Shown here: positions 4,046-11,950 of the stretch, piece by piece
Layout of the letters: every line of letters starts with the position of its first letter
How positions within the stretch are numbered: position 1 is the first letter of the stretch
From: a virus
Virus record (IMG/VR): IMGVR_UViG_3300028284_000036
Span: 1 to 21,132 of that record
DNA length: 21,132 bases
Reading direction: 5' to 3' (one strand)
Translations under genes and position numbers: made by a program
Notes under the pieces: generated by a model
The model's database searches: none
The model's input: only the letters and a program-made list of their open reading frames with translations
What the model was told of the DNA's origin: nothing

Positions 4046-5767
4046 TTAGTGGGTGTCTGCCCAGTTCTTCCCGACTTTGTACTCGCCTGCGAGGGGGCAG
4101 TTGAGTTTGTAGTGAAGTCCGGCAGCTTCAACACAAGCCGTTGCCAAGCGGCCAAACCTTTCTGCGTCTTTCGATTTAACTTCTGTCTGGATTTCATCAT
4201 GTATGTTTCCTATTATCTTAAAGTCAATTTTATGGAGGTTAGCGTACTCTACCAGTAAACATAGGGCTTTCTTCATAACGATAGCACCTGCTGATTGAAG
4301 TAAGCTGTTTAACGCAGCATGTTCTGACCGGATTGCCACTCGTCTTCCATCCAATCCAAGAACATAACCTCTTCCAGATGCCACTGTAACCTGTTCTCGT
4401 AGTCTTCCAAGAGCTGGCGTATTTGCAAGGAACTTTTCTTTAAGTCGTTTACCGACCTTTGCAGTTCCTCCAACGATGCTTCCGATTTTTGAATCTCCTG
4501 CGCCGTATAGGAAAGCGTAGATGAAAGTCTTTGCTTGGTCTCTAGTCTCAAGGCCCGCAGCCAACTGGTTTGCTGTGTGAATATCTCCTGTGAGTATTTC
4601 ATTAGTGTAGTCCTCATCCTTCATATAGTGTGCCAGCATACGTAACTCTAAACCGCTGGCGTCCATACCAACCAAGCTATAACCTTCAGGTACTGTCCAG
4701 CAAGCTCTACATTCTTGGCCGTAAGGCGAGTAGACTGCTGGTACTTGACCCATGTTGGGGCTTGAGTGTGTCATACGGCCCGTTACAGCGCCGTTAGCAT
4801 TTACGTAACCGTGTACTCTATCGTCTTCTTTAACGGCTTCTATCCAGCTCTGCACCTGTGCGATACGCTTCTGCACTAACAGATACTCCCCAATCAACGC
4901 AGCCTCTGGTATACCCTTGACTTTGTTGAGTACCGACTCGTCTACAATCGGCTGACCCTTCTCAGTGAAAGACTTAGGTTTCCACCCAAAGTACTGTAGG
5001 TATCGGCCTATCTGTTGACGCGAACCTAAGTTAAACTCTGGGTAATCAATCCTGCTGAAGTCTGCTACTGCTGTCTCCCACTGCTCACCTAAGAACTTTA
5101 AACCAACTATAGAGTAGGTGCCGTCCTTCTTTACCTTCGGTGATACTTGTTTTATAAAAGTAGGTAGAGGTCTAAACTTCTCATGTACCTTATCCTCTAA
5201 GTCAAGCTTTTTCTCTTTTAATTCAGCTAATAAGACAAACGCTTTCTTCTGGTCTAGGAGCCAACCGTTCTTGATTTGCTGAGCAATAATGTCTTGTACT
5301 TGATGTTCAAGGTCAACGCTCTCACTTCTAAAATCATTAAGCTTCGAGATGAGTTTCTTGTAAACACGTTCATTAACTCTAACGTCTTGCTGACAGTACT
5401 CCACCATATCCTGAGAAAAATTAAGCCAATCATTGTAATCCCCTTTAAGGCATCCTAATTGCTCGCCCCAGCTATCTAGTGAATGACCACCTTGGCGTGA
5501 AGGCTCTGCCAAGCGTGACATAACAAGTGTGTCAGTTACTTTCTTATCAGTGAAGTCTACGTTCCAAAGCTTTTTGAGCGCCGGTATATCATAGCCAATT
5601 ATGTTGTGGCCTATGATTTCCATCTGCTCAGAATAAAAGTAATCTTTAAAAGCAACCTCACTGGTAAACACTAGCTCTTTAGCTGTGCTTACTTCACGTA
5701 CTGCAACACACCATATAAGAGTAGGCTCTAGCCCGTTGGTTTCAATGTCAAAGACTATCTTCTTCAT
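4046..5767 (-). CDS. Family A DNA polymerase with 3'-5' exonuclease domain, T7-type
   Basis: The 573-residue enzyme copies the phage genome. Exonuclease residues are Asp7 and Glu9 (FDIETNG), Asp60 (GHNIIGYD), and Tyr124/Asp128 (YCQQD). Polymerase motif A is MDASGLELR (Asp369, Glu374). Motif B is RDQAKTFIYAFLYG, with Arg409, Lys413, Tyr417 and Tyr421. Motif C is HDE (Asp524). Tyr417 sits at the place of E. coli Pol I Phe762 and T7 Tyr526. The frame can be extended 15 residues upstream to 5812, but the ATG at 5765-5767 begins directly with the exonuclease motif, overlaps the previous stop (TAATG), and has GGAG upstream, so it is preferred. T7 polymerase has 704 residues; the shortening fits a smaller exonuclease domain and the absence of the thioredoxin-binding insertion. 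Confidence 0.95.
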   Translation of the reverse strand: MKKIVFDIETNGLEPTLIWCVAVREVSTAKELVFTSEVAFKDYFYSEQMEIIGHNIIGYDIPALKKLWNVDFTDKKVTDTLVMSRLAEPSRQGGHSLDSWGEQLGCLKGDYNDWLNFSQDMVEYCQQDVRVNERVYKKLISKLNDFRSESVDLEHQVQDIIAQQIKNGWLLDQKKAFVLLAELKEKKLDLEDKVHEKFRPLPTFIKQVSPKVKKDGTYSIVGLKFLGEQWETAVADFSRIDYPEFNLGSRQQIGRYLQYFGWKPKSFTEKGQPIVDESVLNKVKGIPEAALIGEYLLVQKRIAQVQSWIEAVKEDDRVHGYVNANGAVTGRMTHSSPNMGQVPAVYSPYGQECRACWTVPEGYSLVGMDASGLELRMLAHYMKDEDYTNEILTGDIHTANQLAAGLETRDQAKTFIYAFLYGAGDSKIGSIVGGTAKVGKRLKEKFLANTPALGRLREQVTVASGRGYVLGLDGRRVAIRSEHAALNSLLQSAGAIVMKKALCLLVEYANLHKIDFKIIGNIHDEIQTEVKSKDAERFGRLATACVEAAGLHYKLNCPLAGEYKVGKNWADTH

Positions 5768-8624: not shown

Positions 8625-8653
8625 ATTATAGCATTAATTATAGCCTTTGTCAA
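8625..8653 (-). promoter_or_regulatory. Consensus sigma70-type promoter for the replication operon
   Basis: On the minus strand, TTGACA (8648-8653), a 17-base spacer and TATAAT (8625-8630) form a perfect consensus. The -35 box lies in the last codons of the upstream zinc-ribbon gene. The expected transcription start is near 8618, leaving a leader of about 95 bases before the SSB gene. It would drive the whole leftward arm through a host RNA polymerase holoenzyme. Confidence 0.88.
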
Positions 8654-8840
8654 ATTCAAATTCATCTAGGCTAATTGTGAAGTCTATCTGGGTATCTACG
8701 GTGGCGTCGAAGTCACTGTAAGCCTTACTTGAAATCTTACTACAGTCGTAGCAAAGGCCTACCATTGTGTCTGATTTACCGTAGGTTTTGTTTAGTTCCG
8801 CGTTAGTCAATATAACGTCACAAGCTTTGCATCTACTCAT
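8634..8840 (-). CDS. Small zinc-ribbon protein (68 aa)
   Basis: The ATG at 8838-8840 is chosen because GGAG lies nine bases upstream; the frame could also begin five codons earlier at a TTG, but without a good ribosome site. The 68-residue product has two CxxC pairs, Cys4/Cys7 (CKACD) and Cys30/Cys33 (CYDC), which most likely bind zinc, followed by an acidic C-terminus (DFTISLDEFEFDKG). Such small phage zinc ribbons often bind nucleic acid or host proteins. It overlaps the upstream gene by 8 bases and ends over the -35 box of the replication promoter. Confidence 0.72.
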   Translation of the reverse strand: MSRCKACDVILTNAELNKTYGKSDTMVGLCYDCSKISSKAYSDFDATVDTQIDFTISLDEFEFDKGYN

Positions 8841-9063
8841 TTTGTCTCTCTCCAAATGCGTTGTCGTGTTTCTGTTTGAAGTCGCTGTAAGACATTGCGT
8901 GGTATTCCTGTCGTAGCCTATCAGCGGCCATGGCTTGCATCTCTGATACTGTCATGCAGTAGAGCTGATACTCGACCAGCTCATTAACCATTACGTAGCT
9001 ACTATCGTCTAGCCAGTCGCTCTGATGGTCGTAACCAATCAACTGCTCTTTAATCTTGCTCAC
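8833..9063 (-). CDS. Hypothetical protein (76 aa)
   Basis: The 76-residue product begins MSKIKEQLIGYDHQSDWLDD and appears mainly helical (VNELVEYQLYCMTVSEMQAM, DRLRQEYHAMSYSDFKQKHD). It is hydrophilic, with no membrane segment and no metal motif. The coding frame overlaps the next gene by 8 bases and abuts the upstream gene at 9063. Similar proteins with a YCMTVSEM segment seem familiar from marine phages, but no function is known to me. Confidence 0.7.
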   Translation of the reverse strand: MSKIKEQLIGYDHQSDWLDDSSYVMVNELVEYQLYCMTVSEMQAMAADRLRQEYHAMSYSDFKQKHDNAFGERQNE

Positions 9064-9275
9064 TATTCGTCGTCCTCATCAAATGTATAAACGTTACCCC
9101 AAGAAATAACAATACAGGGCAGCAGTATTATAACACCTTGAAAGGGCATTGTCTCTATTTCCCCCGTTAAACTGTTCTGTGTATATACTGGCCTGCTATC
9201 GACGAATTCGATATCTAAACCGGTTCCAGCTCTAAACTCTATCGATAAATGCCTGTTAAATAATATCCAGCTCAT
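9063..9275 (-). CDS. Hypothetical protein with a hydrophobic segment (70 aa)
   Basis: The 70-residue product has a charged, beta-like N-terminal half (WILFNRHLSIEFRAGTGL), then a hydrophobic stretch near residues 46-62 (FQGVIILLPCIVISWG) and an acidic end (FDEDDE). The stretch could be one membrane span or the core of a small beta fold. The start overlaps the MazG-like gene by 4 bases (ATGA), which supports translation. Function unknown. Confidence 0.62.
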   Translation of the reverse strand: MSWILFNRHLSIEFRAGTGLDIEFVDSRPVYTQNSLTGEIETMPFQGVIILLPCIVISWGNVYTFDEDDE

Positions 9276-9840: not shown

Positions 9841-9942
9841 TTAATTAATTAATGCTGTAAAACAGTACGCGATACTGTACCCAATTGCAAACCCCAGCGC
9901 GAAGCGCAGCACAGTGCCTAACATAGCGCCACCCGCAACCAT
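9841..9942 (-). CDS. Putative small membrane peptide (33 aa, or 27 aa from an internal ATG)
   Basis: The frame overlaps the end of the HTH-like gene. From ATG at 9940-9942 it gives 33 residues, starting MVAGGAMLGTVLRFALGFAI and ending in CFTALIN. A second in-frame ATG at 9922-9924 would give 27 residues. Almost the whole peptide is one hydrophobic segment with small-residue GxxxG-like spacing (GFAIG), as in helix-packing membrane peptides. Neither start has a strong ribosome site, so expression would rely on coupling. A 6-base inverted repeat lies within it (9862-9878). Confidence 0.45.
   Translation of the reverse strand: MVAGGAMLGTVLRFALGFAIGYSIAYCFTALIN
9862..9878. repeat. Inverted repeat ACAGTA-N5-TACTGT
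   Basis: ACAGTA (9862-9867) and TACTGT (9873-9878) form a perfect 6-base dyad with spacer CGCGA. It lies in the small membrane peptide gene and about 35 bases upstream of the next gene, so it may be an operator or may be chance. Confidence 0.3.
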
Positions 9943-10202
9943 GCCGAAGACAGTCTATCCGCCTCTGACTCAAGTTTGTTAAATTGTGACCGCTCCCGTG
10001 CCTTTTTACCGTATCGCTCTGGGTTGCGCTCGTGGGCCGGTGTGATATCCCAAGCGGTTATTTCGTTTTTACCTTTGAGCCTTCTGTACAGTGTGGCGTT
10101 GCTTATGTTAGTAATCAGAGACACCGCGTAAATGCTGTAACTGGCGCCGGTGATAAGCCGCGGGTGTTCACCGCTGAATATTAGCTCTTTAGTTTGTCGC
10201 AT
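9918..10202 (-). CDS. Putative HTH DNA-binding protein (94 aa)
   Basis: The 94-residue product contains YSIYAVSLITNISNATLYRR near residues 22-41, which reads as a helix-turn-helix, followed by a basic LKGKNEIT. The C-terminal half is charged (RNPERYGKKARERSQFNKLE). It could recognise DNA in the control region to its right, but no direct evidence links them. The start has GGAG and a spacing of about ten, in a context (GGAGTATA, then AT-rich, ATG) that is also seen for its upstream neighbour. It ends inside the membrane peptide frame. Confidence 0.6.
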   Translation of the reverse strand: MRQTKELIFSGEHPRLITGASYSIYAVSLITNISNATLYRRLKGKNEITAWDITPAHERNPERYGKKARERSQFNKLESEADRLSSAWLRVALC

Positions 10203-11252: not shown

Positions 11253-11327
11253 TACCCTTTGACCATTTAATTACAATTAATTTCCACAGCATAGATATAA
11301 GGAGCGGGCGCGCGCGAATACTACAGA

Positions 11328-11344
11328 TTGACAACCATTGTCAA
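11328..11344. repeat. Inverted repeat TTGACAA-CCA-TTGTCAA
   Basis: A perfect 7-base dyad with a 3-base spacer. It stands eight bases before the first GTGAC-N16-GTCAC element and shares the TTGAC/GTCAA half-site with the dyad over the leftward -35 box. The symmetry and size are typical of a dimeric repressor operator. Confidence 0.5.
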
Positions 11345-11351
11345 ACATTAG

Positions 11352-11379
11352 CGTGACCAATCCATCTTGATTAGTCACG
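11352..11379. repeat. Dyad element 1: GTGAC-N16-GTCAC (extended hairpin)
   Basis: Arms are CGTGACCAATC (11352-11362) and GATTAGTCACG (11369-11379), complementary at 10 of 11 positions around a 6-base loop. The GTGAC and GTCAC ends are at 11353-11357 and 11374-11378. It is the best-paired of three elements with identical geometry in this region. Confidence 0.6.
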
Positions 11380-11471
11380 AGTATCTCTTGCAGTGTGGTT
11401 GCTTGTGTGTTACATATGTGGTCTGTAGGTATCCTATAGCATACTCACTCCCCAGTTGTACAGGTGTAAAC

Positions 11472-11497
11472 GTGACTATCCTTTCGCTTCTGGTCAC
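11472..11497. repeat. Dyad element 2: GTGAC-N16-GTCAC
   Basis: GTGAC at 11472-11476 and GTCAC at 11493-11497, with 16 bases between, the same geometry as the elements at 11353-11378 and 11541-11566. The interior is not complementary, which favours a protein site over an RNA hairpin. The right arm reads GGTCACCAATTG, similar to the right arm of element 3. Confidence 0.55.
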
Positions 11498-11540
11498 CAA
11501 TTGATTTGCTTGTGGGCCTTATGTGTGCTAGTGATTACCC

Positions 11541-11566
11541 GTGACCCTTGAGTACCATCCGGTCAC
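11541..11566. repeat. Dyad element 3: GTGAC-N16-GTCAC
   Basis: GTGAC at 11541-11545 and GTCAC at 11562-11566 with 16 bases between. One extra base pair is possible (GTGACC with GGTCAC). Its right arm continues GGTCACCGATTGGGCTTG, an imperfect copy of the sequence after element 2. A weak TTGACA lies ten bases downstream. Confidence 0.55.
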
Positions 11567-11702
11567 CGATTGGGCTTGACAATTCCTGTAGCCTATGATA
11601 AACAGGGGGCGGGGGGCCGGTTGTGGCTTTGGTATTCTCATGGGTACCCTCTGATATACAAAAAAGTGACCATTTAGGAAGGAGACGTGTGTGAGCTATA
11701 AG

Positions 11703-11719
11703 TGTTACCAAAAGTAACA
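11703..11719. repeat. Inverted repeat TGTTAC-CAAAA-GTAACA
   Basis: A perfect 6-base dyad with a 5-base spacer, about 105 bases upstream of the rightward -35 box. It may be an operator; no T-run follows to make it a terminator. Confidence 0.4.
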
Positions 11720-11774: not shown

Positions 11775-11796
11775 GTACACTTAAGTACACTAAAGG
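11775..11796. repeat. TTAAG-centred palindromic element, upstream copy
   Basis: This copy has core GTACACTTAAGTACAC followed by TAAAGG. The copy at 11930-11950 has GTATACTTAAGTATAC followed by TAAGG, so the two share the pattern GTAYACTTAAGTAYAC and a similar right flank. This one lies about 30 bases upstream of the rightward -35 box; the other lies in the leader. Confidence 0.55.
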
Positions 11797-11823
11797 GGGT
11801 AGTTAAATTAACTGAAATACTTC

Positions 11824-11852
11824 TTGACTTCTAAGCTAAAATATGGTATAAT
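11824..11852 (+). promoter_or_regulatory. Rightward sigma70-type promoter for packaging and head genes
   Basis: TTGACT (11824-11829), a 17-base spacer and TATAAT (11847-11852). The -10 region and spacer end (AAAATATGG, TATAAT) closely resemble the promoter at 16474. The expected start is near 11859, giving a leader of about 110 bases before the TerS-like gene. It is flanked by two TTAAG-centred palindromes. Confidence 0.85.
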
Positions 11853-11929
11853 ATACCTATGTTATAAATTACTTCATTTAGTTATTAACATTAAGATATT
11901 AACAAAAGAACTTAACTAAAGGGTCTTAG

Positions 11930-11950
11930 GTATACTTAAGTATACTAAGG
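11930..11950. repeat. Perfect 16-base palindrome GTATACTTAAGTATAC, leader copy
   Basis: The palindrome at 11930-11945 is perfect and followed by TAAGG. It lies about 70 bases downstream of the expected transcription start and about 25 bases before the TerS-like start codon. Related elements stand by the other two consensus promoters (8562-8580 and 16504-16523). Confidence 0.6.

What the first reader, a model, noticed from the sequence alone, without database searches (positions are those of the whole stretch)
11352..11566. Three dyads with identical GTGAC-N16-GTCAC geometry in the divergent control region
The sequence shows GTGAC and GTCAC arms separated by exactly 16 bases at 11353-11378, 11472-11497 and 11541-11566. 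The interiors differ, apart from the hairpin-like first copy, so the conserved part is the arms and spacing. This is what a dimeric or tetrameric DNA-binding protein would need, with half-sites two helical turns apart (21 bases between equivalent positions). They lie in the only large gene-free region, between arms transcribed in opposite directions. They could be operators for an early-to-late switch, or origin iterons. I know of no described phage operator with this geometry.
Basis: partly seen in the sequence, partly recalled or inferred. Interest (0 to 1): 0.72.

Follow-up and report, generated by a model that had tools for sequence, protein, structure and literature searches.

The report
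Two-way activator site in phage promoters
A marine phage carries three copies of a paired DNA signal (GTGAC, 16 bases, GTCAC) that lies between back-to-back promoters and probably binds an unidentified protein that switches genes on in both directions; quite different uncultured marine phages carry the same signal, but sequenced bacteria show no sign of using it.

Summary
Observation confirmed: GTGAC-N16-GTCAC occurs three times in the divergent intergenic region and nowhere else in the window (0.04 expected). In relatives, 16 is the only enriched spacer. The conserved core is GTGACY-N14-RGTCAC. Arms change at 1.4% of positions, interiors at 20%. The core has been kept, almost always outside genes, across a large uncultured podovirus family. 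The dyad has a fixed place: a TTGACA-like -35 starts 8-9 bp outside each arm, with a TGnTA extended -10 about 17 bp further on, often on both sides. Two lineages shift -35 and -10 together by one helical turn. The same unit, with perfect TATAAT, precedes genes in unrelated phage contigs related to Phage C48C1 (Kyanoviridae, ~150 kb). In 257 Gb of bacterial genomes it occurs only at chance level. Best reading (inferred): a bidirectional, class-I-type activator site centred near -57.5 of divergent host-RNA-polymerase promoters. It works like the shared P2 PP/PO late-promoter site, but the spacing differs and no Ogr was found. The binder is unknown. The 94-aa HTH protein is missing from several dyad-bearing phages, and no phage gene is shared by all. 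In many relatives the same slot instead holds tandem DnaA-box-like repeats. No binding, transcript or activity was measured.

The parts
11353..11378 (.). Dyad 1, GTGAC-N16-GTCAC (also able to form a hairpin)
   Evidence: orthologues in L243, L279, L268 (one arm base changed), L103, L113
11472..11497 (.). Dyad 2, GTGAC-N16-GTCAC, the copy at the fixed 45-48 bp distance from the conserved block B
11541..11566 (.). Dyad 3, GTGAC-N16-GTCAC
11576..11604 (+). Rightward promoter-like element 9 bp after dyad 3: TTGACA (11576-11581), 17-bp spacer, TGA then TAAACA (11599-11604)
   Evidence: sequence; same position in relatives
11433..11462 (-). Leftward promoter-like element 9 bp from dyad 2: -35 TGTACA (11462-11457), 18-bp spacer, TGC then TATAGG (11438-11433); its -10 lies in block B
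   Evidence: sequence; conserved in relatives
11506..11534 (+). Weak rightward promoter-like element 8 bp after dyad 2: TTGCTT, 17 bp, TGC then TAGTGA
   Evidence: sequence; relatives
11315..11344 (-). Leftward promoter-like element 8 bp from dyad 1: -35 TTGACA (11344-11339), poor -10 TATTCG
   Evidence: sequence
11388..11416 (+). Weak rightward promoter-like element 9 bp after dyad 1: TTGCAG, 17 bp, TGT then TACATA
   Evidence: sequence
11426..11448 (.). Block B, TAGGTATCCTATAGCATACTCAC: conserved block that contains the leftward -10 and a GTAT-N8-ATAC palindrome
9918..10202 (-).

Best explanation
Each dyad is the binding site of a symmetric (dimeric or tetrameric) transcription activator that sits upstream of host sigma-70-type promoters. 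Because the site is symmetric and midway between two back-to-back promoters, one bound activator can recruit the host RNA polymerase in both directions, to the leftward replication-gene arm and the rightward arm. Half-sites two helical turns apart lie on one face of the DNA; the dyad is centred near -57.5 of each promoter, or one turn further away in two lineages. Shown by sequence: the arms, the spacing, selection on the arms, the promoter-like elements at fixed offsets, the paired one-turn shift, and the presence of the same unit in unrelated phages. Inferred: that a protein binds, that it activates rather than represses, and that it contacts RNA polymerase from this position. Unknown: which protein it is. 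It may be a host regulator that several unrelated phages exploit, or a phage protein that was not recognised.
For: In 36 non-redundant family dyads that were not chosen for promoters, a TTGACA-like hexamer (at most 1 mismatch) begins 8-10 bp outside the arm in 13 (left) and 11 (right), against 0.5 in shuffled flanks (maximum 5 of 2000). TGnTA lies at +28 to +30 in 14 and 14 (shuffled 0.5, maximum 4). Both occur on the same side in 7 and 9 (shuffled 0.01, maximum 1). Secondary clusters of -35 at +20 and of TGnTA at +40/+41 are the same promoter moved by one helical turn. The first dyad lies 45-48 bp from block B in 31 of 34 slots and 58 bp in the other 3. Arms change at 2/140 positions, interiors at 46/224, flanks at 53/420. 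Among viral-contig hits chosen only for dyad + TTGAC, 38 of 137 promoter-side matches have a perfect TATAAT at the right spacing, against 0 of 114 in bacterial genomes. Unrelated phage contigs of 23-153 kb carry it in front of genes.
Against: No binding or transcription data. The leftward -10 (TATAGG, TAGAGG) is a poor sigma-70 match and relies on the extended TG. Only 3 of 36 non-redundant family dyads have a strict TTGACA-like element on both sides; in the window the two-sided arrangement needs weaker matches. No common binder gene was found, and no host regulon. A few family dyads have no recognisable promoter nearby.
Confidence: 0.62

Rival explanations
1. Repressor operators of a genetic switch: a dimer bound at the dyads shuts off the divergent promoters, perhaps by looping between copies.
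For: Several copies (3 in the window; spacings of 119 and 69 bp kept in L243 and L279) suit cooperative binding or looping. Divergent promoters are typical of switches.
Against: The dyad lies upstream of -35 and overlaps neither the promoter nor the start. Most slots have one copy. The one-turn shift keeps the helical face. In other phages single dyads stand upstream of strong TTGACA/TATAAT promoters. A different palindrome, GTAT-N8-ATAC, overlaps the leftward -10 and looks more like a repressor site.
Confidence: 0.17
2. Replication-origin initiator sites (iterons): the dyads recruit an initiator, and some relatives use host DnaA boxes in the same slot instead.
For: In 18 of 64 slots the place between block B and the G-rich run holds two or more TGTGGATAA (DnaA-box) repeats and no dyad; dyads and arrays tend to exclude each other (Fisher p = 0.0002, not corrected for relatedness). 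AT-rich DNA (23% GC) with repeats lies nearby, at 11820-11940.
Against: Dyads are locked to promoter elements, while DnaA-box arrays start anywhere from 30 to 126 bp from block B. Five slots have both. Other phages use single dyads upstream of gene promoters at several places in one genome. No initiator gene co-varies with the dyad.
Confidence: 0.1
3. RNA-level elements: the dyads work as hairpins, for example terminators, in the transcripts.
For: Dyad 1 folds well (-9.9 kcal/mol, z = -4.9) and is flagged as terminator-like on the minus strand.
Against: The inner arm pair is C-A in 10 of 31 distinct sites, so base pairing is not kept although the letters are. Interiors are unrelated, there is no Rfam match, and the positions are upstream of promoters.
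Confidence: 0.03

Closest known systems
P2/P4 late promoters activated by Ogr/Delta (TGT-N12-ACA; divergent PP and PO)
   Same: A symmetric activator site upstream of sigma-70 promoters. From my own knowledge it is centred near -55 and one site serves the divergent PP and PO. In P2-like phage Smp131 the putative PP' and PO' sites are one and the same dyad read in both directions (nt 4398-4381 and 4381-4398; PMC3931495).
   Different: The half-sites are GTGACY, with 14 bp between the six-base arms. No Ogr_Delta protein was found in 12 dyad-bearing records. It is present in phages not related to P2.
Mu Mor and C activator sites
   Same: Phage dyad-symmetric activator sites read by a dimer that recruits host RNA polymerase through its alpha and sigma subunits (PMC4287176).
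   Different: The Mor site is centred at -43.5 and overlaps the -35 region, with a different sequence. Here it is centred near -57.5 and the promoters have recognisable -35 elements.
Class I activator sites such as CRP at -61.5
   Same: Helical phasing is kept when the site is moved by a whole turn, as seen here (from my own knowledge of CRP).
   Different: Different sequence (TGTGA-N6-TCACA) and half-site spacing; a host regulon is known for CRP, none was found here.
DnaA-box arrays (TTATCCACA)
   Same: They take the same slot in many relatives.
   Different: Direct 11/22-bp repeats with no fixed distance to the promoter, not a dyad.

Membership tests
Ogr/Delta-activated P2-type late promoters | Symmetric site of consensus TGT-N12-ACA | tested here: not met
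   The arms are GTGACY/RGTCAC with spacer 14 (16 between the five-base arms)
Ogr/Delta-activated P2-type late promoters | An Ogr_Delta zinc-finger activator is encoded (PF04606) | tested here: not met
   0 of 12 dyad-bearing records at E <= 1; control genomes gave matches
Ogr/Delta-activated P2-type late promoters | Site centred about 55 bp upstream of the start, shared by divergent promoters | tested here: met
   Centre near -57.5 inferred from -35/-10 positions on both sides; starts not mapped
Class I activator-dependent sigma-70 promoters (functional class) | Activator site upstream of, and not overlapping, the -35 element, at a fixed helical phase | tested here: met
   Offsets 8-9, and 20 in two lineages, with the -10 moving in step; fixed distance to block B
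Class I activator-dependent sigma-70 promoters (functional class) | Activation through contact with the RNA polymerase alpha C-terminal domain | not testable with these tools
   Needs in vitro transcription
Iteron or DnaA-box replication origin | Repeated initiator sites next to an initiator gene or an AT-rich unwinding element | tested here: inconclusive
   AT-rich DNA at 11820-11940, but no initiator gene co-varies and dyads are mostly one to three copies locked to promoters
Host regulon site used by the phage | The same unit is present at host promoters | tested here: not met
   114 scattered hits in 257 Gb, below my rough chance estimate of about 240, with background -10 matches; 18 of 375 sampled alpha- and gammaproteobacterial genomes have a hit, none more than one site on either strand

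The most novel reading that the evidence does not exclude
A previously undescribed transcription-activation signal is shared by unrelated uncultured marine phages (small podoviruses and T4-type phages of about 150 kb). It is read by a regulator that is either a host protein these phages independently exploit or a phage activator not yet recognised. In the podoviruses it drives both genome arms at once from one symmetric site.
Probability: 0.4. Interest if true: 0.78.

Novelty: new variant of a known kind. Interest (0 to 1): 0.62.

Why it matters
No record matching the T7-type RNA polymerase profile was found among the family's contigs, although that search lacked a positive control. How such phages time transcription is then open. 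Here the cis-signal is defined to the base, recurs in unrelated phages and sits where an activator would act, so it could serve as bait for the missing regulator and as a tag for phages that share it. The exchange with DnaA-box arrays in one slot makes it testable whether phages swap host-dependent control modules.

Tried and rejected
94-aa HTH protein as the binder: its family is found in 18 loci, but not in the dyad-bearing contigs G001-G004. Its fold is only a moderate-confidence HTH with no significant PDB match. Ogr_Delta: absent. Single-subunit RNA polymerase: no match, but the search had no positive control. The 70-aa product of 9063-9275 is shared by dyad loci of groups A and B, but also by DnaA-array loci, is not found in the other phages and looks acidic and not DNA-binding. 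A zinc-ribbon protein (8634-8855, C-X2-C-X22-C-X2-C) is core in the family only, with weak endonuclease VII-like matches. Profile comparison of the family's core small proteins with those of the 150-kb group found no shared regulator; it stopped after 974 of 1560 pairs. No near isolate: megablast of the region against 50,697 phage records gave nothing. The unit is absent from Phage C48C1 and Erythrobacter phage vB_EliS-L02. Literature searches found no description of this motif. Viral hits L192, L186, L187, L221, L240 and L271 look like chance matches inside genes.

Full report
CHECK OF THE OBSERVATION. Expected by chance is 0.04, and the reversed-pattern control finds none. No other spacer up to 60 occurs between GTGAC and GTCAC in the window. 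The gap between the leftward gene block (start 11185) and the rightward block (start 11969) is the only large gene-free stretch.

WHAT GENOME THIS IS. The window is a 21-kb viral contig. Its leftward arm carries primase-helicase, DNA polymerase, a PAPS-reductase-like protein, MazG, a Cas4-type exonuclease and an endonuclease I. Its rightward arm carries a small basic protein, an M15-type peptidase/endolysin, large terminase, portal and major capsid protein. The replication proteins are nearest, at 46-51% identity, to marine pelagiphages and roseophages. The terminase has hundreds of relatives in uncultured viral contigs but none close among isolates. A megablast of the region against isolates finds nothing.

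CONSERVATION. In loci fetched through terminase and primase, exact GTGAC..GTCAC pairs occur at spacer 16 in 32 distinct sequences and at any other spacer in at most 5. For the looser TGACY..RGTCA the numbers are 53 and at most 11. All 31 distinct exact sites have Y after the left arm and R before the right arm although neither was demanded, and these two positions do not covary as a base pair. Nearly all sites lie outside ORFs of 100 or more codons. Between the window and its nearest relatives the arms differ at 2 of 140 positions, the interiors at 46 of 224 and the 15-bp flanks at 53 of 420.

ARCHITECTURE. An alignment of the control region and a list of slots show a conserved frame: block B (TAGGTATCCTATAGCATACTCAC, window 11426-11448), a variable slot, a G-rich run, then a GATATACAAAAAAG-like block. 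The first dyad sits 45-48 bp from the start of block B in 31 of 34 slots and 58 bp in the other three. Reading outward from each dyad, a TTGACA-like hexamer begins 8-9 bp from the arm and a TGnTA extended -10 lies a further 17-18 bp on, on the right, on the left, or on both. For 36 non-redundant dyads, counts of 11-14 per side compare with about 0.5 in shuffled flanks. In L007/L008 on the left, and in the L020/L026/L030/L034/L040 lineage on the right, the -35 is at 20 instead of 9 and the -10 moves with it, a shift of one helical turn. In the window the clearest promoters are the rightward one of dyad 3 (TTGACA 11576-11581, TAAACA 11599-11604) and the leftward one of dyad 2, whose -10 lies in block B. 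By these elements the dyad is centred near -57.5.

OTHER PHAGES. Of 113 newly fetched loci, 62 match the window's proteins and 51 do not. Many of the 51 fall into groups. Some contigs resemble Phage C48C1 (Kyanoviridae, 156 kb), and two dyad-bearing contigs of 151 and 153 kb carry several sites each. There the element is GTGACY-N14-RGTCAC, 9 bp, TTGAC(A/T), 16-18 bp, TATAAT, followed by a gene, and it stands on one side only. The same scan of 257 Gb of bacterial and archaeal genomes gave 114 scattered hits with background -10 matches, against 38 perfect TATAAT among 137 viral promoter-side matches. The chance expectation for the genome scan, about 240, is my own rough estimate. Samples of 190 alpha- and 185 gammaproteobacterial genomes show no regulon. 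So the unit appears to be specific to phages.

THE BINDER. The 94-aa HTH family is found only in part of the dyad-bearing lineages. No gene family separates dyad-bearing from dyad-free members of the podovirus family. Profile searches found no regulator shared by the podoviruses and the 150-kb group. Ogr_Delta is absent. Either the binder is a host protein with few or differently arranged sites on the host chromosome, or it is an unrecognised phage protein. I cannot decide between the two.

WHAT IT WORKS LIKE. The nearest described arrangement is the late-promoter system of P2-type phages: a symmetric site read by Ogr, with consensus TGT-N12-ACA, used in both directions by the putative PP' and PO' of Smp131 (PMC3931495). 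Mu Mor also binds a dyad and recruits RNA polymerase, but at -43.5 (PMC4287176). The element here fails the defining tests of the Ogr system (sequence, spacer, activator gene), so it is filed as working like it and not as a member.

ALTERNATIVES. Repression is possible but fits the upstream position and the one-turn shifts less well. An origin role is suggested by the DnaA-box-like arrays that take the same slot in many relatives. In 64 slots there are 29 with a dyad only, 18 with two or more TGTGGATAA only, 5 with both and 12 with neither (Fisher p = 0.0002); relatedness is not corrected for. But those arrays have no fixed distance to block B, and the dyads do. RNA hairpins are excluded by the C-A pairs, although dyad 1 alone folds well.

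STATUS OF THE STEPS. Shown by sequence: the motif, its spacing, selection on the arms, its offsets to promoter-like elements, its spread, and no sign of it as a regulon in the bacterial genomes searched. Inferred: a protein dimer, activation, two-way action. Unknown: the protein, the host, and the timing in infection.

Noticed in passing
slots of L033, L051, L053, L054, L059, L060, L062, L065, L067, L076, L115, L122, L151, L159 and others: Tandem TGTGGATAAC (DnaA-box sequence TTATCCACA reversed), 2-7 copies with 11- or 22-bp steps, takes the place of the dyads between block B and the G-rich run; L044, L046 and L099 have both elements in the region.
   Followed up: partly
11429-11444, 11644-11659, 11775-11790, 11930-11945: A second palindrome, GTAY-N8-RYAC (GTATACTTAAGTATAC, GTACACTTAAGTACAC and related): GTAT-N8-ATAC has 47 distinct forms in the family against 10-16 at neighbouring spacers. 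One copy overlaps the leftward -10; two flank the strong promoter at 11824-11852 at about -76 and +79, as a looping repressor might.
   Followed up: partly
11824-11852 (+): Near-consensus sigma-70 promoter, TTGACT-N17-TATAAT, with TG before the second hexamer, conserved in relatives and facing the rightward arm.
   Followed up: no
11290-11330: Conserved block AGCATAGATATAAGGAGCGGGCGCGCGCGAATACTACAGA left of dyad 1. In L164 and L007 a shared segment of about 190 bp that lacks dyad 1 lies between this block and block B.
   Followed up: no
11606-11622: G-rich run (GGGGCGGGGGGCCGG) present at this place in nearly every relative.
   Followed up: no
11705-11719: Short inverted repeat GTTACCAAAAGTAAC, kept in several relatives.
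   Followed up: no
L302, L311, L342, L406: Akkermansiaceae genomes share a conserved element, GTGACCAAGTCCAGCTGGTAAGTCAC, followed by TTGACA and a hairpin-like GCGCGGGCTATATA stretch: the same geometry by coincidence or an independent regulator.
   Followed up: no
8634-8855 (-): Core small zinc-ribbon protein of the family, C-X2-C-X22-C-X2-C, close to the cysteine spacing of Ogr (C-X2-C-X22-C-X4-C) but without Ogr_Delta profile support.
   Followed up: partly
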